Origin: a virus
DNA length: 64,000 bases
Direction: 5' to 3' (one strand)
IMG/VR virus record: IMGVR_UViG_3300021962_000023
Location: 62,001 to 126,000 of that record
How positions within the stretch are numbered: the stretch's first letter is position 1; each line of letters starts with the position of its first letter. A model generated the notes under the pieces. It had not been told where the DNA came from, searched no databases, and worked only from the letters and a program-made list of their open reading frames with translations. Made by a program: the position numbers and the translations under genes. Shown piece by piece: positions 1,030 through 61,480 of this stretch.

Positions 1030-1062
1030 CAAATATACGAAAAATTATTAGTATTACCAAAA
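1030..1062 (-). promoter_or_regulatory. Host-type promoter for the DruA-like gene
   Basis: Coding strand TTTTG (1058-1062), 20-nt spacer, TATATTTG (1030-1037), 26 nt before the start. The -33 box lies inside the last codons of the second Mom-like gene, so the DruA-like gene can be expressed apart from it. Confidence 0.7.
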
Positions 1063-1857
1063 TTTAACGGATATTTCTGAATCTGGTTCAATTGTAGTAT
1101 GGTGCTGAACACCTTTATTATATTCTCTAGCATTTTTAGGATAAGGCCTAACTTCGTGTTTTAACCTCTTAATCAAATCTTTCTTCTCCTTTTTATCTGC
1201 TCCTATGATTTGTATGTATCTATGCTTTGGTGGTTCTTCTCTTCTCCAAAATTCTTTGTAACCATCTTTACCGATTTCTCTACGAAGATGTTCTAAATTA
1301 CCACTACCCCATTTGGTAAACACAGTCCTACTATGAATCCATTTAAATGGGTCATTTGATAGAGAGATACCATAATTTGGCATTAGGGCAATATCAGTAT
1401 TTAACCCCTGATAAATCCAATTGGTTGCTTGATAAATTCCTCCCAAATGTTCTTGTCCGTTATCTGCATAGGAAATAAGTACTTTGATATTCTTATCATT
1501 TTCTCTGAACCATTTGAATGATTGTCCTAATGCATATGATTCTATATTTGAACCATATCCATCATCACAATATAAACGAGTCAATTCCAAAATATTATCT
1601 TTGGTCAATCCCTCACATACCGATGTAGATGCTCTCGCACCTACGGGAAATCCATAAACCATACATCCAATTAGAATCTCATCATCACCAATTACATTTT
1701 GATTATCAGTTTTGTAAAATATACCCAATGCATATCTACAAGCAGTCCAAGCGTGAGTATAGTGTTTTTTAACAATAATCTCTTTGGCTACATTACTATT
1801 GATTTCTCTTATGGATACTTTACTCGTATCACAATATAACTTATTAACTTCTTTCAA
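1054..1857 (-). CDS. Mom-like GNAT-fold DNA modification protein, copy 2
   Basis: 267 residues. Motifs match the Mom family of phage DNA-modification proteins (GNAT acyltransferase fold; Mu Mom makes a carbamoylmethyl-type adenine): HY at 32-33, ELTRL at 91-95, NIES at 104-107, SYAD at 129-132, HLGG at 137-140 and YQATNWIYQG at 142-151. It is a paralogue of the upstream gene and overlaps it by 14 nt, so the two are probably translationally coupled. The N-terminal nine residues are almost identical in both copies (MKEvNKLYCD/MKEpNKLYCD). Acyl donor and target base cannot be read from sequence. A protein acetyltransferase is the main alternative. Confidence 0.7.
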   Translation of the reverse strand: MKEVNKLYCDTSKVSIREINSNVAKEIIVKKHYTHAWTACRYALGIFYKTDNQNVIGDDEILIGCMVYGFPVGARASTSVCEGLTKDNILELTRLYCDDGYGSNIESYALGQSFKWFRENDKNIKVLISYADNGQEHLGGIYQATNWIYQGLNTDIALMPNYGISLSNDPFKWIHSRTVFTKWGSGNLEHLRREIGKDGYKEFWRREEPPKHRYIQIIGADKKEKKDLIKRLKHEVRPYPKNAREYNKGVQHHTTIEPDSEISVKFW

Positions 1858-2605
1858 TTGGTTCTAATTTATGTATTTCTTCAATAAATTCCTCTTTTGC
1901 TTTTGGATATGGTAACGATGGATACTTTAAAGATTTTAATAACTTCTTTTTTTCCCTACCACTCAAAAGTATATAAACATATCGATGCTTTCTCGGTTCT
2001 TTTTTAATCCAAAATGGTACGGATACCATTGTTTGGATTATCTTTGGGTCATTAGTACCATATCTTACAAAAGATGTTCTACTATGATGCCATTCATCAT
2101 CTTCCTTCCACTTAAAACTCCAACTATCATTTGGTCTGATTCGATTTCCCTGATATATCCAATTTGTTGCTTGATATACAGTTCCTAAATGACCTGCTTT
2201 TGGGTCTGAATACGATACTAATGCTTTGATATGTGATGCGTTTTCTCTCAACCATTCAAATGATTTACCAACAAACCAACTTTCAATATTACTACCATAT
2301 CCATCAAATACAAATAAACGGGTTAGTTCTAAAACCTCCGTTCTATCTAATAGTTCCGAAATGGATGCGCCGGAATGTCTACCAACCGGGTCACCATAAC
2401 AAGCTACTCCAATAAGTTTTTCGTTTACTCCACCAAAGAATTTGTGTTCATCGTTTGAAACATGAAACAAACCAATAGCATAAGATACCTTCGTCCATAT
2501 ACCACTATAATGGTTATTGACGATGATATCTTTTGCTACATTTTTATTTATTGCTCTTACGATTAATTTAGAAATATCACAATATAACTTATTAGGTTCT
2601 TTCAT
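1844..2605 (-). CDS. Mom-like GNAT-fold DNA modification protein, copy 1
   Basis: 253 residues, paralogous to the downstream gene. The same motif series is present: HY at 32-33, LIGVACYGDPVGR at 64-76, ELTRL at 93-97, NIES at 106-109, SYSD at 131-134, HLG at 139-141 and YQATNWIYQG at 144-153. The C-terminal 60 residues are Lys/Arg-rich, as expected for DNA binding. It overlaps the HTH-like gene before it (14 nt) and the second Mom-like gene after it (14 nt), forming a tight three-gene run. Two diverged copies may form a heterodimer or have split specificities; this is inference. Confidence 0.7.
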   Translation of the reverse strand: MKEPNKLYCDISKLIVRAINKNVAKDIIVNNHYSGIWTKVSYAIGLFHVSNDEHKFFGGVNEKLIGVACYGDPVGRHSGASISELLDRTEVLELTRLFVFDGYGSNIESWFVGKSFEWLRENASHIKALVSYSDPKAGHLGTVYQATNWIYQGNRIRPNDSWSFKWKEDDEWHHSRTSFVRYGTNDPKIIQTMVSVPFWIKKEPRKHRYVYILLSGREKKKLLKSLKYPSLPYPKAKEEFIEEIHKLEPIERS

Positions 2606-12953: not shown

Positions 12954-13348
12954 TCATTAGTATTAAAACTTTTGAAAACTTTTGTAGGGATTTTTTTGTA
13001 ACCTATGTTAGATGTAGTGATTATGCAATTTCTGAATTCATCCCAATCAATCATATATGAATTATCCAACATACCACCTGTTTTTGATTTAACTACTTCG
13101 TTTAAAGCGTTAATGGTATATATGGTATTTGATTGTTTTTTTCTATGTACCAAAATAGTTTTCCATTCTGATGGAATAGCAGATGAACCTTTACCCACAT
13201 TAAATGTAATAAAGGCTTCTTCAGGTTTTATTTTGCTTTCTAAAATGAAAACATTTGGATTTGTTAAAGTATAGTTTGTTAATACAAAACTAACCGATTT
13301 ATCTAACTCTTCCTTTGTCGTAAATAGGCAAAGTAATTGTGTATTCAT
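12941..13348 (-). CDS. Hypothetical protein
   Basis: 135 residues, not recognised. It has alternating strands and helices (LLCLFTTKEELDKSVSFVL, EAFITFNVGKGS, WKTILVHRKKQSNTIYTINALN), suggesting a small alpha/beta fold. It starts at the last base of the upstream 683-residue gene, so translation is probably coupled to it. Its stop is embedded in the promoter region of the next gene. Possibly a late protein, since the upstream operon has a late-type motif. Confidence 0.6.
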   Translation of the reverse strand: MNTQLLCLFTTKEELDKSVSFVLTNYTLTNPNVFILESKIKPEEAFITFNVGKGSSAIPSEWKTILVHRKKQSNTIYTINALNEVVKSKTGGMLDNSYMIDWDEFRNCIITTSNIGYKKIPTKVFKSFNTNDLEF

Positions 13349-15399
13349 TATGCTTGATTTATTTTATTGTCTATTTCTTTACAAGCCATCTGAAATTCTT
13401 TTGATGGTAAACATTCTAAAGAAACAGCCCCATTATATCCAACTCCCTTTTCTCTCATTTGAATATTAGCTATTTTTAATGGTTTTGCATTATTACCCTT
13501 TGCTGAATATGTTAATGATGCCACACCATTTGTAACTTTAATACTTAAAAATTCTTTTATATTATCCCACTTATCAGTTCCAAACATTTCTTGCATATGT
13601 TTTTGTGTGATATACATACTATCAATTTGCATTGTTTCAACCCCCTCAACCATTGTTTTAACAGGAATTGCTTCTTGCAATTTTCTCAATAACATACCTT
13701 GGAAATCTTTATTAGTTGCCATTTTTTTAGCAGCTTCTTGCATAAATCCATATGTTATTTCTTTGTGAGATTCTAACCAATCGGTTTTACCAGAATATGC
13801 TCCTAACATTTTATGATAAACCATTACTGCTTTTTTGAAATCCTTTGCACCTCCACCAATATTTTTTGCAAAATCTTCCATATCCATTTGTTTAACACTA
13901 TTTAGATATGATTGAACTCTTAATGCCAATTGAGCTTCATTTTTATCCATAGCTAATGGGTCATTTTTCTTACGGCTTGTACAATCTTCAATTACCTTAT
14001 TAAAATCTTTCTTTGGTATTTCTCTAATCAATCCAAATCCTCTTTGTGCACTTTCTAATTGTGCATCTTGCAACTCTTTATTTTTAATAGGTGCCTTTGA
14101 TAATGCGATTTTAGAATATTCTCTTAATTCTGCATCTTCATTTTTACCAAAACGAGGGTCTTTTGCATCTTTCATATTCTGCAAATCATTAGCTCTACTC
14201 TCTTTTTCCGGTCCTAATGTATAGAACCAGTTTTTAGCTTCACCTAAACCTGCATTTAATAAAAATATTTCCCAATTCTTTTTACAACTGATTTCAATGT
14301 TTTCAATTTGCCCTTTTATTTTAACTTGTGCATTAATATCAGTTGAATCACCTTTATCATCGTAATTTGCACCCAATGCTTCTTGTTGTTGTCTAACATC
14401 CCAAGTCATACCTGTAACTTCCCAATTTCCATCACCATATTGTCTGTTCATATTTTTAATGAACGCATCATGTGCACCTGAAAATTCTTTAATCCAAGTT
14501 TTATCTAATATAGGAGTTCCACCTGCTTTTTCAATTGCATCAGCGTTTTGTACTAATGAATCTATAAATTGATTTCTCAATTGAATACCTTTTGGCGTAT
14601 TTGGAAACGAATATACCGCTTGTAATGCCAACTCGTTAGCTTGTGCTGAAATTTTACCTGCGCCATATTGGTCGGTAATCATACTAATAGGTGGTTCGAA
14701 ATCACCTTGCTTAGACATTTTTAAAATACTTTTTAAAGCATCATATCCAGCTGGTGGTAATTTACTTCTCAACATTGCATCCGATTCTTTTGGATATTCA
14801 TATTTTGTAGTAATACCTTGTGGATATGTTTTCTTAAAATTAGAAAGAGCCTTTTCAGTTGAAACGCCTGATGGTGGTAATGCTTTTAATCTATTTGCTG
14901 CTCTTTTTTGGTCAACTGTTTTAGAACCTCTAGTACCATATTTTTGTTTTGGTGGAGCAACTACTACACCTTTTTTAACATCTACCTCTTTTGATGTAGA
15001 TTGTTTTTTCTTCTCAGCTCCACTCAATCCAATATCAGCTTTTGGTGCAATATTTTGTTTTCCTACATTTGGTTGTGATGGAGTTTCTTTTGGTATCGTA
15101 CCACCATTTTTCTGCTTTGCTTTAGCTATTTCGGCAGGTGTTGGTTTAGTATGATATGTCGGGTCCATCTTCTTAACCACATAGATGTTTCCTGATTTTT
15201 TATTTTTAACTACATCATCTTCATTCAAATACGAAAAATACACTCTAGCTCTTTGTGCAAGATGTGCAGCATCCGATATACCATTCTCTCTTAAAATATC
15301 GATTAAATGATTAACATGAGATTCTTTGTTTAAATCGGGTATTCCCCCATCTACTCTATAACTTAACTCGTCTAATATTTCTTTGAAATTCGGAATCAT
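13348..15399 (-). CDS. Putative internal virion protein, 683 aa, with possible nuclease-like core
   Basis: 683 residues. The N-terminus MIPNFKEILDELSY resembles T4 capsid-targeting peptides and contains LDE, the same tripeptide as the predicted gp23 processing site. Residues 75-175 are a basic, Pro/Lys-rich linker. A central region (about 315-385) contains STDINAQVK and IEISCKK separated by a short loop, which could be the acidic/lysine pair of a PD-(D/E)XK-type nuclease; this is tentative. The C-terminal 200 residues are helical. It is coded next to another LxE-starting protein with a late-type motif upstream, far from the head genes. Function unknown; packaging with DNA is the working idea. 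Confidence 0.5.
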   Translation of the reverse strand: MIPNFKEILDELSYRVDGGIPDLNKESHVNHLIDILRENGISDAAHLAQRARVYFSYLNEDDVVKNKKSGNIYVVKKMDPTYHTKPTPAEIAKAKQKNGGTIPKETPSQPNVGKQNIAPKADIGLSGAEKKKQSTSKEVDVKKGVVVAPPKQKYGTRGSKTVDQKRAANRLKALPPSGVSTEKALSNFKKTYPQGITTKYEYPKESDAMLRSKLPPAGYDALKSILKMSKQGDFEPPISMITDQYGAGKISAQANELALQAVYSFPNTPKGIQLRNQFIDSLVQNADAIEKAGGTPILDKTWIKEFSGAHDAFIKNMNRQYGDGNWEVTGMTWDVRQQQEALGANYDDKGDSTDINAQVKIKGQIENIEISCKKNWEIFLLNAGLGEAKNWFYTLGPEKESRANDLQNMKDAKDPRFGKNEDAELREYSKIALSKAPIKNKELQDAQLESAQRGFGLIREIPKKDFNKVIEDCTSRKKNDPLAMDKNEAQLALRVQSYLNSVKQMDMEDFAKNIGGGAKDFKKAVMVYHKMLGAYSGKTDWLESHKEITYGFMQEAAKKMATNKDFQGMLLRKLQEAIPVKTMVEGVETMQIDSMYITQKHMQEMFGTDKWDNIKEFLSIKVTNGVASLTYSAKGNNAKPLKIANIQMREKGVGYNGAVSLECLPSKEFQMACKEIDNKINQA

Positions 15400-15407
15400 T
15401 ATTTTAT

Positions 15408-15869
15408 TTATCTTTTTGATGCGTAAATTTTTGTAGATTTAGTTTTAACTGCATCATGCGGTCTAAATACTTGGAATCGTGTACCATCTTTAAAAACTAT
15501 ATTTCCACCATGTGGGCTGGTACGAGTATATACACCACTATCTCCCTTACTTAATCTGTTTGCAAGTTCTTCGGCCTCTTTATCTACAAATCCGTGTCTA
15601 TCTTTAACTTCTAAACCTTGTGAAAGAGAGTTAGATACCATTGATACATCTACTTGCTTATCTGCTTTTATATCAGTTATAGATTTATCAGCACCTCCAC
15701 CAAAAACGGATGTTCCTTTAACTTTGGCAGCTTGGCCAGCAGTTGTTGTTTTACCAGCTATCGTAACTTTGGTATCCGGTCTTAATTGGTGTTGTTTATG
15801 ATATGCATCAAATGCGTCCTGATTTCTAAAATCAATTTCTTTTAAGGGGATTAGGTTTACTAATTTCAT
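15408..15869 (-). CDS. Putative internal virion protein, 153 aa
   Basis: 153 residues, basic, with N-terminus MKLVNLIPLKEIDF: a short amphipathic peptide ending in LKE, a site type cut by T4-family prohead proteases. Two other head-module proteins start in nearly the same way. The rest is Lys/Gly/Thr-rich with predicted strands at the C-terminus (GGNIVFKDGTRFQVFRP). It precedes the 683-residue protein by 8 nt, and a late-type motif lies 34 nt upstream. Not recognised otherwise. Confidence 0.5.
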   Translation of the reverse strand: MKLVNLIPLKEIDFRNQDAFDAYHKQHQLRPDTKVTIAGKTTTAGQAAKVKGTSVFGGGADKSITDIKADKQVDVSMVSNSLSQGLEVKDRHGFVDKEAEELANRLSKGDSGVYTRTSPHGGNIVFKDGTRFQVFRPHDAVKTKSTKIYASKR

Positions 15870-15902: not shown

Positions 15903-15911
15903 TATAAATAT
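15903..15911 (-). promoter_or_regulatory. Late-type promoter motif before the 153-aa gene
   Basis: Coding-strand ATATTTATA, 34 nt before the start codon, inside a 48-nt intergenic gap, with no TTG box 20 nt upstream. It places the two putative internal proteins in the late class. Confidence 0.5.
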
Positions 15912-17224: not shown

Positions 17225-18001
17225 TTACTCTCCCCAATGTTTTTTACGAAGTTCGTACATATCGATTGCTTCTCTCTTCATTTGGTTACCTGGATGGAAA
17301 TATGCTCCTTTTTTTAAATACCCACCTAAGAAGTTTCTTCTCATTCTATTAGGGTCTCTATTTGGTTCTGAACCGTGTACTACATGGGAGTGTAATAATG
17401 CTACCTGTCCTTTTTTCAAATAACCCTCTACCTTACGGAAATCATGTCCTTCTGGCATTACACAACTTTTACCTCTTTCACTTCTCCAGTTATCAGTATT
17501 TGTTGCTTTTCTTTCTTCGTTATCTTCAATTGGTAAAACTGGTAATCTATGTGAACCTTCATAGTTCCATACTGCTCCGTTTTCAGGGTCGTGATTATCT
17601 AATGCTAATGCGGTATTGATAATCTCATTGTGTCCACATCCTGTGTAAAATGCGTTTTGATGTTGGTCTCTTCCTAATTCACCTTTTGGTTTGTAATATC
17701 CCCAAGTTTGTAAACCAACAACTTCTCCTTCCATTAAGAATTCAGCTGCTTCCATAATTTTTGGATGTGCAAATAATTTTTCAATTAAAGCAGATTCTCT
17801 ATGTGGATACATAATAGGTTCGAACTCTTGCCATTTGCCAGGTTCTCTTTCATTACGCTCTACACGTAATCTATCTAATTCTACATTGATTTCATCCACT
17901 TCAGTTTCAGTAAGTAATTCTAAAACAGTGAATCCACGATATCTCCAATCAAATGACATTTGTTGAAGTTCTTCCGTTGTAAGATGTTTGTATTGTGCCA
18001 T
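17225..18001 (-). CDS. PhyH-like Fe(II)/2-oxoglutarate oxygenase
   Basis: 258 residues of the phytanoyl-CoA dioxygenase family: YYKPKGELGRDQHQNAFYT (102-120), ENGAVWNYEGSHRLPVLP (140-157), and HSHVVHGSEPN with His209 followed by RMRRNF with the 2-oxoglutarate-binding Arg around 221. The usual metal motif HxD is H114-Q-N116 here: the codon is AAC, so Asn replaces the aspartate ligand. Family members hydroxylate small molecules; halogenases of the same fold also lack this aspartate. Substrate unknown. It is placed between the baseplate genes and the polymerase gene, with a late-type motif upstream. Confidence 0.8.
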   Translation of the reverse strand: MAQYKHLTTEELQQMSFDWRYRGFTVLELLTETEVDEINVELDRLRVERNEREPGKWQEFEPIMYPHRESALIEKLFAHPKIMEAAEFLMEGEVVGLQTWGYYKPKGELGRDQHQNAFYTGCGHNEIINTALALDNHDPENGAVWNYEGSHRLPVLPIEDNEERKATNTDNWRSERGKSCVMPEGHDFRKVEGYLKKGQVALLHSHVVHGSEPNRDPNRMRRNFLGGYLKKGAYFHPGNQMKREAIDMYELRKKHWGE

Positions 18002-18018
18002 AACTTATTTAGTTTATA

Positions 18019-18027
18019 TATAAATAT
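18019..18027 (-). promoter_or_regulatory. Late-type promoter motif before the oxygenase gene
   Basis: Coding-strand ATATTTATA embedded in a longer TA-rich run, 18 nt before the start codon, in the 71-nt gap after the baseplate genes. Confidence 0.45.
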
Positions 18028-51679: not shown

Positions 51680-53284
51680 TTACAAAGTGTTTAAACCATC
51701 AATTACGATTTTACCGTAGAATTCTGGTCTAACAATTTTCTTAGCGTAACGAGTCATAACTCCTCTTCTTGGAGTGAAGTTAGTTGGGTCGTACACTAAA
51801 GGAGTCATAATCAACGGAACATATGGAGCGTAAACAGCACCTGTTTCGAAGAAGTTAGAACCTTTGAAACCTAATAAGATAACATTTTCTGTCATATAAG
51901 GATTCTTATAAACATCGTATCTATTAGAGATTGAACCGATGTTAGTTACACCTGCTGAGAAAGTTAATGCATCTTTCGATGGATTTGCAGAGAAACCATT
52001 CATTGATTCTAAGATAGTTGCTACATTAGGAGAAACAACGATGAAGTTTGCTCCGCCTCTCATAGTTAATTGGTGAATCTTATTAGAAATCTTTTGTAAT
52101 TTGATTCCTAAAGTTTGATACCAAGTAGATTTTGTGTAAGCTTGACCTGTGAATGAATCAACAGTGAAACCTGCACCATTCCAATCGTATCCAACTCTTG
52201 CAGACCAGTATTCAGTTGTGAATGCGTTTTGCTGTAACATCTCTAAGATTTCTAAATCAATCTCTAAAGAGATGTATTCAGATAACATTTGAGTTAATTC
52301 AGCTTCTGCATCAACAGAGTGGTATGCGTTTAAGTCTTGCGCTAATTCAGGAGTCCAAATTGCTTTCAACTTACGAGTCTTAGCCACGATAGGCTCAGAT
52401 TTCAATTCTAATTCGATTTCTGGAATTGCTAAGTCAGTTCCTCTATCTTCAAAATCTCCACGAGAGATATCAGTAGGTTGTACATGGTATGCTAAAGAAG
52501 CACCATTTGCACCTGCTGAACCTGTACCAGTCACAGTTGCAACGAATTCCACATTAGAACCATTCTTAGTAGTGTATTGAGGGAAGAAAGTTGAAGAACC
52601 TGAAACTAATGATAATTCAAAAGCTCTTACACCATTGAAATCAGCATCAGATGGTAAAGCCACAGTTACTTTCTTTAAAGTGTTTGCTGCATATGATGCA
52701 GAAACAGTAGCATCAGATAAATCATAATCAATATCACCCAAAGATGCAGATGCAACAGTTGCAGTGATAGCAGCAGTTGCATTATTGATTGTATATCCAA
52801 AACGGCCTGCTCCATACAAACCACCTGTTGTAGCTTGAGTAGAACCTAATTTATTTCCTGCTGGAGATAAAGAATCTTTACCTGCAGTACCACCATCACC
52901 AAATAATGATGAACCTGTGAAGTTAGGGTTACCTGCTGGGTTAGAACCATATTTGAAGTCCATGTAGAAAATAAGACCTGAAGGTAAGTTCATTGGTTGA
53001 ACTGAAACGAATTCTTTAGAAGCGATAGAACCGAAGATTCTTCTTACTAAAGGTAACGCAACACCAGCCCACTCTTCAGAACCTGAAGATGTACCTGTTC
53101 TTGTAGCCTCATCTAATAATTGTTTAGCTTGGTTTTCTAACATTACTGCCATACCATGCTTAGTTGTTTCAGAACCTGCGTTCTCTAACAAACCTGTTTT
53201 TTCCCACTTTGCTTTCAAACCTCTAGTTTGCTCAAGCATAATGCTTTGTGGGTTAGCGCCGTTCATTAATTTTTTTAAGTCCAT
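51680..53284 (-). CDS. 23: Major capsid protein gp23
   Basis: 534 residues (T4 gp23 has 521). WAGVALPLVRRIFGSIASKEFVSVQPMNLPSGLIFYMDFKYG is the highly conserved N-arm and start of the HK97 fold; LKAIWTPELAQDLNAYHSVDAEAELTQMLS and ANFIVVSPNVATILESM follow. The predicted prohead-protease site is LDE at 57-59 (QAKQLLDE followed by ATRTG), in the same place as the T4 cleavage at residue 65. It is followed by a strong terminator. Folding probably needs the phage GroES. Confidence 0.97.
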   Translation of the reverse strand: MDLKKLMNGANPQSIMLEQTRGLKAKWEKTGLLENAGSETTKHGMAVMLENQAKQLLDEATRTGTSSGSEEWAGVALPLVRRIFGSIASKEFVSVQPMNLPSGLIFYMDFKYGSNPAGNPNFTGSSLFGDGGTAGKDSLSPAGNKLGSTQATTGGLYGAGRFGYTINNATAAITATVASASLGDIDYDLSDATVSASYAANTLKKVTVALPSDADFNGVRAFELSLVSGSSTFFPQYTTKNGSNVEFVATVTGTGSAGANGASLAYHVQPTDISRGDFEDRGTDLAIPEIELELKSEPIVAKTRKLKAIWTPELAQDLNAYHSVDAEAELTQMLSEYISLEIDLEILEMLQQNAFTTEYWSARVGYDWNGAGFTVDSFTGQAYTKSTWYQTLGIKLQKISNKIHQLTMRGGANFIVVSPNVATILESMNGFSANPSKDALTFSAGVTNIGSISNRYDVYKNPYMTENVILLGFKGSNFFETGAVYAPYVPLIMTPLVYDPTNFTPRRGVMTRYAKKIVRPEFYGKIVIDGLNTL

Positions 53285-55129: not shown

Positions 55130-55567
55130 TTATTTTAATTTTTTGCAAGTTTTGCATTCTTGTAATCCTAATCTTTGTTTCATAACATCTTCGGATACAT
55201 CTGCAATTTCAAAATATCTTCCTAAAACATGCCCCATATCTTCATATAGAGATTCTAATCTTTGTTCTTGTGCTTTTGCTTCGATTGCTTCTTTTTCAAA
55301 TGCGGCTTGTAATTTTTTTAACTCACCCATATTACGCTTAATCGTAACTCTATCGAACCAATCACCACCTTCTCTCAAAGTATATTCTTGTGCTGCATCT
55401 GCGATACCACCTAAAGTTTCTGCAACTTGTCTGATATCAGATTTTCTAGCCATACCTTCTCTATGTTGACCATAGGTAGAAATTATTTCTAAAAAATGTC
55501 TTTTTAGTTCGGTTGGTAATTGTTGAAGTTCTTCCGCTTCGTTTAATAAATCTTTTAAGCGTATCAT
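55130..55567 (-). CDS. Head-module protein, possible internal protein, 145 aa
   Basis: 145 residues, mostly helical, rich in Glu and Lys. N-terminus MIRLKDLLNEAEELQQ resembles a capsid-targeting peptide and contains the LNE site type. The C-terminus ends QECKTCKKLK with a CxxC pair. It lies between the 83-residue and ferritin-like genes with gaps of 3 and 0 nt. Not recognised; prohead core component or internal protein is likely from place and composition. Confidence 0.55.
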   Translation of the reverse strand: MIRLKDLLNEAEELQQLPTELKRHFLEIISTYGQHREGMARKSDIRQVAETLGGIADAAQEYTLREGGDWFDRVTIKRNMGELKKLQAAFEKEAIEAKAQEQRLESLYEDMGHVLGRYFEIADVSEDVMKQRLGLQECKTCKKLK

Positions 55568-55570
55568 ATA

Positions 55571-55822
55571 CTATTTTTTTAAAATATCGTTTTTCTTAAT
55601 GTTCTGAATGTATCTCATTAATTCTTGTCTATCCATTCCCATAGCTTCGATTACTTTAGCAAGAACAAGCATTTCCTTTTTACGATTAAGATTCATTCCT
55701 TTAATTTGAGATACCATTTTATCCAAATATCTCTCTACCGATTGAGGTAATGTTGTATCTAAATCATCAATTGATTCTTTAACATTCATTTGTTTACCAG
55801 GTACTAAATCTACTAATTTCAT
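55571..55822 (-). CDS. Small prohead core-like protein, 83 aa
   Basis: 83 residues from the ATG at 55822; a longer frame back to 55975 would overlap the protease gene by 148 nt and is rejected. The N-terminus MKLVDLVPGKQMNVKE has the MKLV-type start shared by other proteins here. The rest is helical and basic, Met-rich. It follows gp21 by 5 nt. Probably a prohead core or internal protein. Confidence 0.6.
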   Translation of the reverse strand: MKLVDLVPGKQMNVKESIDDLDTTLPQSVERYLDKMVSQIKGMNLNRKKEMLVLAKVIEAMGMDRQELMRYIQNIKKNDILKK

Positions 55823-55827
55823 ATTTT

Positions 55828-56418
55828 TTAGTTTAATTCTATGATTATTTCTCTCATTAAATCTTGTGCTTTGCAGAACTTTCCACATTCTTCTGCAATT
55901 TTTGCCCATTGCTTCGATTCGTTCATTGGTGCCATAAATGCTCCATGTGTAGATGGATTTGATACGAAATCCCATCCAACTAATTCAAAATCTTCCTGAA
56001 CCATTACAGTCCCGTCTCTTAATTCTTTTACTGAACCCAAACCTCTTGATGAAATACCTAAACGAATATTGTTCTTTAATAGTTCTCTAAGAATATTTCC
56101 AGATGGAGTTGAAAGAATTTCTACTACACCACATACATCATCACCTTCCCAATAGATTTCTCTAATATTGTGAGATACATTTTTTAAATTGATAACCGGA
56201 GAATCGGGGTGGTCTAATTCACCCAATGCTCTTCTTTCTTTAATAAGTTGCCCGTATTTCTGGCATTCTCTTTCTAAGATTTCTTTAGGATATCTTCTAC
56301 CATTTTGATTAGCAGCTCCAGCTCTTTGTAGGATTCCCTTAACCAAATAAGTTCCATTATCTTGTTCTACCAATTTTGCTTCAAACAAATGGGTTTCTAT
56401 TAATAATCCTTTATTCAT
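55828..56418 (-). CDS. 21: Prohead core protease gp21
   Basis: 196 residues (T4 gp21 has 212). ANQNGRRYPKEILERECQKYG, then ERRALGELDHPDSPVINLKNVSH with catalytic His70, then IRLGISSRGLGSV with catalytic Ser124, are the diagnostic motifs of the T4-type prohead serine protease. It cleaves after Glu in L/I-x-E sites in scaffold, capsid and internal proteins during head maturation. An LFE site at 11-13 may allow self-processing. Confidence 0.95.
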   Translation of the reverse strand: MNKGLLIETHLFEAKLVEQDNGTYLVKGILQRAGAANQNGRRYPKEILERECQKYGQLIKERRALGELDHPDSPVINLKNVSHNIREIYWEGDDVCGVVEILSTPSGNILRELLKNNIRLGISSRGLGSVKELRDGTVMVQEDFELVGWDFVSNPSTHGAFMAPMNESKQWAKIAEECGKFCKAQDLMREIIIELN

Positions 56419-56832: not shown

Positions 56833-57147
56833 TTACTTTTTTTTTTGAGCCCCTTCGTTTTTGGCTCTCAATTTTGCTAAATCCGAACCTTCAATTTCGC
56901 CATCTCCATCCACATCAATCTTCTTTTGCCCAGCAGTTAGTTCGGCTTCATTGTAACCTCTCAACTTACCTTCTGATTTTGCTTTGTAAGCGGTATCTAC
57001 GGCATTAAAGAATTTCTTCTTATCATCATCGCTCATAGAATTTATATCCTTACCAGTCTTATCCAACATATGTTTAAATAGTTGCTGATAATCTTGTTCT
57101 TCTTTTACTACTTGTCTAACAAGTTCTTTTAATTGAGATACTTTCAT
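56833..57147 (-). CDS. EF-hand-like small head protein
   Basis: 104 residues. N-terminus MKVSQLKELVRQVVKEEQDY is an amphipathic helix. KKIDVDGDGEIEGSDLAKLR near the C-terminus is an EF-hand/dockerin-type calcium loop (Asp, Asp, Asp, Glu, and Asp at spaced positions). It overlaps the previous gene by 1 nt. The last codons lie in a run of ten A, which could cause slippage. Possibly a prohead core protein that binds calcium. Confidence 0.55.
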   Translation of the reverse strand: MKVSQLKELVRQVVKEEQDYQQLFKHMLDKTGKDINSMSDDDKKKFFNAVDTAYKAKSEGKLRGYNEAELTAGQKKIDVDGDGEIEGSDLAKLRAKNEGAQKKK

Positions 57148-57920
57148 TATTCTGAAATTTGTCTAATTTTTTGGTCCAACTTTAATAGTCTTTCTTTTAT
57201 ACTATAAATATGACTATTTGTTCTTTTCCAATAACTTTTATTATCTACACCACTTTCATTCTTAATTTTTCCGTACCAATTAAGAAATTGTTCCATTTCT
57301 GCTAATTGTTTATTGATATTAGATATACCTTTACCTATTTTAGCTTGTGCAGATGATTCTTCATTTTTTAATGCTAACCAACGATTTTCCTTAACTACAC
57401 TATATCCCGTTAAATCTGCTTGTCTTTTACCTTTCTTTTCCTCACTTTCGGGTTTACCAAATGCAAATGGAGTATTATATGGACCGGCTGCACCTGATGT
57501 GTTCATCTCATCTACATCGGCTTTTAGTTCAACATCCTTATACAATCCACTAACTTTTGCATCTAACTCATCTGCAAATTTCTTTTTTAAGGTTTGTAGT
57601 TGTTTTAATCTTTCTACTGCTTTCTTTTCATTAGGAGTTCCTTTTGATTTTTTATACAATTCCAAAGTTTGTGCAATTGCATCAACGGTTTTCATATAAT
57701 CGTTTTGAATGGATTTAACTCCTCTCAATTCGTTTATTACTACTTCTTTAACATGGTCTGGCAATCCTTTATGCTTAGTTGAAGCAAAATCTTTAGCATC
57801 TTTATCAGACATTGAGTCTGCTGCTTTAGAAACTTCTGGAGATGGGTTTTCCATATCACCTTTTTGAGCTGCATGAACCATACCCATAAATCTTTGTTGT
57901 GCTTTTGATTGTGCTGGCAT
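57147..57920 (-). CDS. DUF3008-like head-module protein
   Basis: 257 residues. The first 60 residues (SKAQQRFMGMVHAAQKGD, SPEVSKAADSMSDKDAKDFA, STKHKGLPDHV) match the short basic DUF3008-type protein common in T4-like phages. The remaining 200 residues are a coiled-coil, Lys/Glu-rich extension, so this is a longer variant or fusion. It is between portal and protease genes, where T4 has gp67 and gp68 core proteins. Confidence 0.65.
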   Translation of the reverse strand: MPAQSKAQQRFMGMVHAAQKGDMENPSPEVSKAADSMSDKDAKDFASTKHKGLPDHVKEVVINELRGVKSIQNDYMKTVDAIAQTLELYKKSKGTPNEKKAVERLKQLQTLKKKFADELDAKVSGLYKDVELKADVDEMNTSGAAGPYNTPFAFGKPESEEKKGKRQADLTGYSVVKENRWLALKNEESSAQAKIGKGISNINKQLAEMEQFLNWYGKIKNESGVDNKSYWKRTNSHIYSIKERLLKLDQKIRQISE

Positions 57921-60936: not shown

Positions 60937-61446
60937 TTACCACTTTCTACACGACCAATATCTTGCTTTGTGTCTTGGTCCTGGGTTTTCACAATTATGT
61001 CTTGCTCTAAAAGATTTTCTTCTTTCAGGGTTATTCTTTTTAATTTTAACTCCCTTTTGACCAAAGTTTACCTTTACAACATTACCCGCTGGATTTTTAA
61101 CATAAACTTTGAATTTTTTAACATCACCGGCCATTGGTTTACCCAATTGAACTTTTCTACCTTGATATTCAGCTTCTTTTAAACAAGCACATCCTTCATT
61201 CAAAGATTCATTGTATCCTCTCATAAATTTGATGAAATCTTCATAATCATCGTAATTATCTACATCGTATTCCTCTTCAGGTTCTACTATTCCATAATTT
61301 ACATCATCATCACTATTTATATCTTCACTTACAGGTACACAATTAGGAACTTCTTTACCACCTTTGTTTTTCATACCGATTTGTTGGTATCCTTTCCAAC
61401 AAGGACCTTGCTCTTCGCTTAGATTAATTAAATTTATTAATTTCAT
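60937..61446 (-). CDS. Putative internal head protein, 169 aa
   Basis: 169 residues from the ATG at 61446; a longer frame to 61503 runs through the late motif. N-terminus MKLINLINLSEEQGPCWKGY has the capsid-targeting look and an LSE site. The middle is very acidic (about 42-70, Asp/Glu/Tyr-rich), the end is basic and Cys/Arg-rich (FRARHNCENPGPRHKARYWSCRKW), with two Cys-x-n-Cys pairs that may bind zinc. It lies between terminase and portal genes. Confidence 0.6.
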   Translation of the reverse strand: MKLINLINLSEEQGPCWKGYQQIGMKNKGGKEVPNCVPVSEDINSDDDVNYGIVEPEEEYDVDNYDDYEDFIKFMRGYNESLNEGCACLKEAEYQGRKVQLGKPMAGDVKKFKVYVKNPAGNVVKVNFGQKGVKIKKNNPERRKSFRARHNCENPGPRHKARYWSCRKW

Positions 61447-61471: not shown

Positions 61472-61480
61472 TATAAATAT
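61472..61480 (-). promoter_or_regulatory. Late-type promoter motif before the 169-aa gene
   Basis: Coding-strand ATATTTATA, 26 nt before the start codon at 61446, just after the terminase stop. Confidence 0.5.

What the first reader, a model, noticed from the sequence alone, without database searches (positions are those of the whole stretch)
13348..15869. A set of putative packaged (internal head) proteins marked by capsid-targeting-like N-termini, two of them coded far from the head genes
Seen: five proteins of otherwise unrelated sequence start with a short amphipathic peptide ending in a leucine-x-glutamate site: MKLVNLIPLKE (15408-15869), MIPNFKEILDE (13348-15399), MKLINLINLSE (60937-61446), MIRLKDLLNE (55130-55567), and more weakly MKLVDLVPGKQMNVKE (55571-55822). 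The predicted gp23 cut site is also LDE. Known: T4 internal proteins and Alt are targeted by an N-terminal peptide removed by gp21 at L/I-x-E, then injected with the DNA. Inference: these are internal proteins, and the 153- and 683-residue pair, preceded by a late-type motif, would be delivered into the host at infection start and could be novel takeover or anti-defence effectors.
Basis: partly seen in the sequence, partly recalled or inferred. Interest (0 to 1): 0.75.

Follow-up and report, generated by a model that had tools for sequence, protein, structure and literature searches.

The report
Phage locus for swappable packaged proteins
In an uncultured relative of phage T4, two late genes beside the DNA polymerase carry short N-terminal tags that look like "pack me into the head, then cut here" signals, and related phages keep the tags while swapping what follows, often for DNA-cutting-enzyme-like domains, so the locus looks like an arsenal of proteins loaded into the virion and injected into the next host.

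Summary
The five ORFs and their N-termini are exactly as described. By itself an N-terminal L-x-E is weak evidence (12 of 62 genes, about 5 expected), but relatives from IMG/VR make the case. The P153 leader, M[KR]L[IV][ND]LIPxKE, occurs at protein N-termini 144 times and internally 5 times, on at least five unrelated families. L and E are invariant and x is free. P153 and P683 sit in a fixed hotspot (polA – [header 1] – header 2 – MNTQLLC gene – ssb – recA). There, 79 header-2 proteins carry seven C-terminal classes, about five superfamilies. Two are HNH-like by motif; P683's own class is PD-(D/E)XK-like by motif only. The cassette has its own late-type motif (TATTTATA). Refinement: P683's pro-region probably ends at the second conserved site, Y-[LI]-x-E60. 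Relatives exchange leaders at such E| junctions. Best reading: a T4-internal-protein-like, polymorphic injected-effector locus with a new leader, new position and much larger payloads. Packaging, cleavage, injection and nuclease activity are inferred, not shown; fold searches were negative. New variant of a known kind.

The parts
15903..15910 (-). late-type motif TATTTATA heading the cassette
   Evidence: 15/15 such motifs in the window lie 18-60 bp upstream of gene starts; an exact copy lies within 90 bp upstream of the first tagged gene in 65 of 90 distinct hotspot loci, 5.4 expected
15408..15869 (-). P153, header-1 protein (153 aa)
   Evidence: relatives; no Pfam/PHROG family
15837..15869 (-). 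P153 leader MKLVNLIPLKE, predicted prohead-protease site after E11
   Evidence: L9/E11 invariant, x10 K/Q/H/R in 47 distinct headers; leader shared by unrelated families; residues 1-9 disordered in the AF2 model
15726..15836 (-). P153 conserved IDF..RPDTKV..GK.TTAG domain (residues 12-48) after the cut site
   Evidence: alignments A3/A5; follows LNE| instead of LKE| in L014
15411..15692 (-). P153 variable C-terminal module (residues 60-153)
   Evidence: found in only 5 header-1 proteins and assorts independently of the header-2 class
13348..15399 (-). P683, header-2 protein (683 aa)
   Evidence: relatives; no Pfam/PHROG family
15220..15399 (-). P683 header/pro-region (residues 1-60), conserved across unrelated C-terminal classes
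15367..15375 (-). first conserved L-x-E (LDE, residues 9-11)
   Evidence: L9/E11 invariant in 72 distinct headers, x = K/L/S/E/A/D
15220..15228 (-). second conserved [LI]-x-E (LNE, residues 58-60), predicted mature N-terminus at 61
   Evidence: VY[FY]xx[LI]xE in 64 of 79 relatives, another [LI][RN]E there in 10; invariant in A4 including L005, whose 14-residue leader MGILQKVFRLFLSE ends at this column
13351..15219 (-). P683 payload (residues 61-683)
   Evidence: one of 7 C-terminal classes on the same header
14278..14424 (-). PD-(D/E)XK-like core (residues 326-374: WD, KGDSTD, EISCKK)
   Evidence: W333, D334, K349, G350, S352, D354, S371, K373, K374 invariant in 15 relatives, E369 nearly so; shared with class 5, hhalign E 1.6e-6; fold not confirmed
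60937..61446 (-). CWKGY-family protein between gp20 and gp17, leader MKLINLINLSE
   Evidence: relatives carry M[KR]L[IV]NLIPLKE| or other leaders before the same domain; late motif at 61472-61479
55571..55822 (-). 83-aa head-module protein with leader MKLVDLVPGKQMNVKE
   Evidence: relatives MAKLINLIPVKE, MKLVNLIPGKE
55130..55567 (-). 145-aa head-module protein, leader MIRLKDLLNE
   Evidence: relatives LLSE/LLKE/LLRE/ILKE/LMKE: x free, E kept
55828..56418 (-). T4 gp21-type prohead protease
   Evidence: phrog_207 head maturation protease, E 2.5e-52
53108..53116 (-). predicted MCP cut site LDE|A (residue 59)
   Evidence: same site in immuto (VSE|A) and Mel-JY01 (ISE|A)

Best explanation
P153 and P683 form a polymorphic internal-protein cassette of a T4-like phage. 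They are made late, from their own late promoter. Their N-terminal leaders should draw them into the prohead core, where the gp21-type protease cuts after [LI]-x-E (E11 in P153; most likely E60, perhaps also E11, in P683). The trimmed proteins would then stay in the head and be injected with the DNA. Relatives recombine leader/header and payload at these junctions, so the slot works as a cartridge for changing early-acting effectors. P683's payload is most likely a nuclease (PD-(D/E)XK-like) acting on host or competing DNA, or on a defence target; P153's small module is a second effector or inhibitor. Shown here: portable leaders, invariant sites, variable payloads in a fixed slot, the late motif, and the protease gene. 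Inferred: packaging, cleavage, injection, enzymatic activity.
For: A portable leader occurs on at least five unrelated families, 144 N-terminal against 5 internal. L9/E11 is invariant with a free middle residue in 47 + 72 headers. A second [LI]xE lies at the header/payload junction in 74 of 79 relatives. Junction swaps: the L005 leader ends at column E60, L014 joins header 2 to the IDF domain after LNE|, and CWKGY proteins carry LIPLKE|, IIKE| or VVNE| leaders. 79 header-2 proteins fall in 7 C-terminal classes, 2 HNH-like by motif. Fixed slot: polA on the left in 116 of 130 loci, MNTQLLC gene on the right in 121 of 121. Late motif. gp21-type protease. The T4 precedent is the same architecture: leader-only similarity among Ip1-3, a hotspot, injection (PMC12373910), and cleavage after L/I-x-E (PMC9026906).
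Against: There is no virion proteomics for this lineage. A bare L-x-E at the N-terminus is only about 2.4-fold enriched in the window. E11 of header 2 lies in a predicted helix, so its invariance could be structural. The nuclease assignment of P683 rests on a motif: no Pfam/PHROG hit and no PDB fold match at moderate model confidence, pTM 0.54. HNH profile hits in class 4 are below cut-off. Five class-1 relatives lack the second [LI]xE site.
Confidence: 0.72

Rival explanations
1. The leaders are prohead-core targeting signals, but the proteins are structural core or scaffold parts used in head assembly, not injected effectors.
For: Three of the five tagged proteins lie in the head module: two between gp21 and gp22, one between gp20 and gp17. 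T4 IPIII also affects head assembly (PMC9026906).
Against: The hotspot pair lies about 38 kb away between replication genes and has interchangeable, partly HNH-like C-termini. Header 1 can be missing or multiplied. Core parts are expected to be conserved.
Confidence: 0.15
2. The leaders dock the proteins to a phage complex such as the replisome next to which they are coded; they are not packaged, and the L-x-E is part of a binding helix.
For: The cassette lies between polA and ssb/recA. E11 of header 2 is in a predicted helix.
Against: Its own late-type motif. The same leader marks proteins in the head module. Leaders are exchanged at E| boundaries.
Confidence: 0.08
3. The hotspot is a landing site for free-standing selfish endonucleases, and the shared N-termini are recombination homology only.
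For: Two C-terminal classes are HNH-like; the slot changes content often.
Against: Header and L-x-E are conserved at protein level across unrelated payloads, and the leader also occurs elsewhere in the genome on unrelated proteins. Most payload classes are not recognisable homing enzymes.
Confidence: 0.05

Closest known systems
T4 internal proteins IPI/IPII/IPIII and their capsid targeting sequence (Ip1-3; PMC12373910, PMC3012670, PMC9026906)
   Same: Short N-terminal leader ending in L/I-x-E shared by otherwise unrelated proteins; a variable locus; a gp21-type protease in the genome; late-type expression signal.
   Different: Different leader sequences and a different slot (polA/ssb); payloads of up to about 850 aa instead of small inhibitors; a 60-residue second header type; several classes nuclease-like; no detectable sequence relation of the mature parts to any Pfam/PHROG family.
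T4 Alt (packaged ADP-ribosyltransferase)
   Same: A large enzyme-like packaged protein with a short N-terminal pro-peptide.
   Different: No ADP-ribosyltransferase domain found; the locus is polymorphic.
phiKZ/SPN3US ejection proteins processed by gp21-like proteases
   Same: Large packaged proteins with pro-regions that can hold several cut sites after x-x-E.
   Different: Not homologous by any search here; T4-type MCP and protease, L/I-x-E instead of S/A-x-E.
Polyvalent proteins (PMC5512222)
   Same: Multidomain early-phase effectors thought to be injected with phage DNA; modular swapping.
   Different: No polyvalent-associated domain found by Pfam; here the joints coincide with prohead-protease sites and the locus is fixed.

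Membership tests
T4-type internal proteins (capsid-targeted, gp21-processed) | the phage encodes a gp21-type prohead protease and a T4-type MCP with an N-terminal L/I/V-x-E site | tested here: met
   phrog_207 E 2.5e-52; MCP QLLDE|A and the same site in two isolates
T4-type internal proteins (capsid-targeted, gp21-processed) | short N-terminal leader shared by otherwise unrelated proteins | tested here: met
   144 N-terminal vs 5 internal occurrences, at least five unrelated families plus singles
T4-type internal proteins (capsid-targeted, gp21-processed) | leader ends in L/I-x-E with free middle residue | tested here: met
   47 header-1 and 72 header-2 sequences; 74/79 have a second site
T4-type internal proteins (capsid-targeted, gp21-processed) | polymorphic locus with conserved leader and variable mature part | tested here: met
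   7 header-2 C-terminal classes, 9 header-1 C-terminal types, fixed flanks
T4-type internal proteins (capsid-targeted, gp21-processed) | late expression | tested here: inconclusive
   late-type motif upstream and conserved, but no transcript data; the motif assignment itself is inferred
T4-type internal proteins (capsid-targeted, gp21-processed) | sequence homology of the mature protein to a known internal protein or Alt | tested here: not met
   no Pfam or PHROG family for P153/P683, no INPHARED tblastn hit
T4-type internal proteins (capsid-targeted, gp21-processed) | presence in the virion, trimmed N-terminus, injection | not testable with these tools
   needs proteomics of a cultured member
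PD-(D/E)XK nuclease superfamily (P683 payload) | conserved D ... (E/S)xK active-site pattern on adjacent strands | tested here: inconclusive
   D354 and S371-x-K373 invariant, E369 nearly so; strands 355-361 and 364-372 in the model; the motif is a variant one
PD-(D/E)XK nuclease superfamily (P683 payload) | restriction-endonuclease-like fold | tested here: inconclusive
   no significant Foldseek match in PDB; whole-chain model with pTM 0.54
HNH endonucleases (class 4 payloads in relatives) | D-H ... N ... N..K metal/catalytic pattern | tested here: inconclusive
   LDH, N341, W342, N350, Q351, K353 invariant in 10 sequences; profile hits only E 0.06 (Pfam) and 0.008 (PHROG)

The most novel reading that the evidence does not exclude
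A polymorphic-toxin-like arsenal delivered by a capsid. One pro-region and one protease site serve as a universal joint onto which a phage lineage clips unrelated ready-made endonucleases that are packed in the head and fired into the host ahead of gene expression, to destroy host, plasmid or rival-phage DNA.
Probability: 0.4. Interest if true: 0.8.

Novelty: new variant of a known kind. Interest (0 to 1): 0.62.

Why it matters
Injected internal proteins are well studied in coliphage T4, where they counter type IV restriction. This gives a second, independent and much more diverse example in a largely uncultured aquatic T4-like lineage. It comes with a leader signature that can be searched for to list packaged proteins genome by genome, and with payloads that look like nucleases rather than nuclease inhibitors. 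It turns "which proteins does this phage inject?" into a sequence query with named cut sites that mass spectrometry can test directly.

Tried and rejected
(1) A simple enrichment test of N-terminal [LI]xE: weak, 12 vs 5 expected, so not used as the argument. (2) P153 and P683 as a cognate effector/immunity pair: rejected, header-1 C-terminal types and header-2 classes assort freely and header 1 may be absent. (3) Cultured relatives by tblastn: none for either protein or either header; the nearest isolates were reached through gp17/RecA. (4) Fold searches: PDB none at E<=0.001 for either model; BFVD only one uncharacterised phage protein. (5) Profile search of PDB sequences: only chance-level hits. 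(6) Self-protection by 7-deazaguanine or thymidylate-synthase-type base modification: no QueC, TGT or ThyA family in the 198.5-kb record, although the isolate immuto is annotated with such genes; other modifications were not tested. (7) Cellular relatives of the P683 payload in GTDB: none found. (8) PADLOC: none. (9) One family query (PF20157) was a wrong accession and is void.

Full report
1. What is there. The window is part of a 198,534-bp IMG/VR virus record with T4-type head genes. Nearest isolates by terminase are Flavobacterium phage immuto (54%) and Microcystis phage Mel-JY01 (54%; its RecA is 55% identical). P153 (15408-15869) and P683 (13348-15399) lie between a family-A DNA-polymerase-like gene and a conserved 135-aa gene ("MNTQLLC"), followed by ssb and recA-like genes, about 38 kb from the head genes. 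Neither has a Pfam or PHROG family, nor a relative in INPHARED.

2. Is the leader more than chance? Counting [LI]xE near the N-terminus gives 12 of 62 genes against about 5 expected, which would not convince. Relatives do. Patterns derived from the two headers bring in 57 (header 1) and 216 (header 2, 80 kept) IMG/VR loci. The headers sit at residue 1 in almost all matches. In 47 distinct header-1 and 72 distinct header-2 sequences, L9 and E11 never change, while the residue between them is K/Q/H/R or K/L/S/E/A/D. This is what a protease needing L-x-E would leave behind.

3. The leader is portable. The pattern [KR]-L-[IV]-[ND]-L-[IV]-P (searched in a slightly looser form) occurs 144 times at protein N-termini and 5 times internally in all open frames of the fetched loci. 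The N-terminal cases fall in unrelated families. The loci were fetched through some of these families, so the counts are not an unbiased census; the N-terminal restriction and the number of unrelated bodies do not depend on that. The fourth candidate (55130-55567) uses another leader, MI[RK]L[KR]D[LI]LxE, with x free and E kept.

4. Joints coincide with predicted cut sites. Header 2 has a second conserved site at its end: VY[FY]xx[LI]-x-E in 64 of 79 relatives, another [LI][RN]E at that place in 10, none in 5. P1' is mostly A in the VYF form (31 of 51), as at the MCP site. In L005 the P683 payload follows a 14-residue leader MGILQKVFRLFLSE that ends exactly at this column. In L014 header 2 runs into the IDF domain of header 1 after LNE|, where header 1 has LKE|. 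In the CWKGY family the same domain follows LIPLKE|, IIKE| or VVNE|. I therefore place the mature N-terminus of P683 at residue 61, with E11 as a possible second cut. That gives a 60-residue pro-region, comparable with the MCP's 59 here and the 65 reported for T4 gp23. Several cut sites per pro-region are reported for phiKZ-type phages (PMC9026906).

5. A polymorphic slot. The tagged genes are bounded by polA on the left in 116 of 130 loci and by the MNTQLLC gene on the right in 121 of 121 where the flank is present (loci, not deduplicated by contig; 82 distinct header-2 C-termini). Architectures range from header 2 alone to three header-1 genes plus header 2. The 79 complete header-2 proteins fall into 7 C-terminal classes (16, 15, 14, 14, 10, 9, 1). 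With headers removed, profile comparison links class 2 (P683) with class 5 (Prob 90, E 1.6e-6) and class 0 with class 3 (Prob 96), and no others among the six classes compared, leaving about five superfamilies. Header-1 proteins have at least 9 C-terminal types that assort freely with header-2 classes, against a cognate effector/immunity pair. A 484-kb uncultured phage (LR756508) has a header-2-like protein (MDVDLNKILLEWSYRVDKGYP...) in the same slot. Immuto has a tagged protein (MENFDLKKFLVENRLT, leader shared with three other immuto proteins) between the MNTQLLC homologue and ssb.

6. Timing. On the coding strand TATTTATA occurs 15 times in the window, every time 18-60 bp upstream of a gene start, though only 9.6% of positions are within 100 bp upstream of one; most of these genes are tail or head genes. 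P153 has a copy at 15903-15910. Relatives keep an exact copy upstream of the first tagged gene in 65 of 90 distinct loci (5.4 expected). Where header 1 is absent the motif directly precedes header 2 in many loci. This suggests late expression of a cassette embedded among replication genes.

7. What the payload may do. In P683 relatives W333, D334, K349, G350, S352, D354, S371, K373 and K374 are invariant and E369 nearly so. With the predicted strands 355-361 and 364-372 between helices, this fits a variant PD-(D/E)XK site, and class 5 has the same motif (HGTSSD...GISLKKD). Class 4 has an invariant LDH...NW...NQxK pattern, and class 6 DLEHV...N..NQKK, both HNH-like, with sub-threshold profile support for class 4. 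No fold or profile search confirms a nuclease for P683, so this step is a motif-based inference (about 0.5).

8. Mechanism and precedent. The T4 picture (PMC3012670, PMC9026906, PMC12373910): internal proteins share only an N-terminal leader, enter the prohead core, are cut by gp21 after L/I-x-E, are injected, occupy a hotspot, and Ip1-3 block different type IV restriction enzymes. A T4 head can carry foreign nucleases. The present locus meets every testable part of that architecture, with a different leader, a different slot and much larger, partly nuclease-like payloads. It works like an internal-protein locus; membership by homology of the mature parts is not met, and virion presence is untested.

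9. Verdict. Observation confirmed; interpretation partly supported and sharpened. New variant of a known kind.

Noticed in passing
window, 15 sites (e.g. 15903, 28244, 30538, 61472): The putative late promoter of this lineage reads TATTTATA on the coding strand, the reverse complement of T4's TATAAATA; 15 of 15 copies are 18-60 bp upstream of gene starts.
   Followed up: partly
L133:6001-8454: An 818-aa protein is two complete header-1 proteins fused head to tail, with the second leader MKLVNLIPLKE intact at about residue 405; an internal cut would split it.
   Followed up: no
L016/L019 (Flavobacterium phage immuto): Four proteins share the N-terminus F[DN]L[KR][KS]FL[VT]EN[KR]LT with unrelated continuations, one of them in the polA/ssb slot: a second leader type in a cultured phage.
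   Followed up: partly
L017:20277-21106 (Microcystis phage Mel-JY01): Two adjacent genes share the N-terminus MIKLKSLL[QK]EIISDRVWHLTT.
   Followed up: no
window 17225-18001: A 258-aa gene that looks like a phytanoyl-CoA-type dioxygenase (my reading of the sequence, no profile run) has a late-type motif at 18019-18026, next to the hotspot.
   Followed up: no
window 57147-57920: Head-module protein with an N-terminal DUF3008 domain (E 2.8e-9), similar to several phage families including one annotated virion structural protein.
   Followed up: no
window 1054-2605: Two adjacent genes with similar N-termini (MKE[VP]NKLYCD.SK), apparently tandem paralogues.
   Followed up: no
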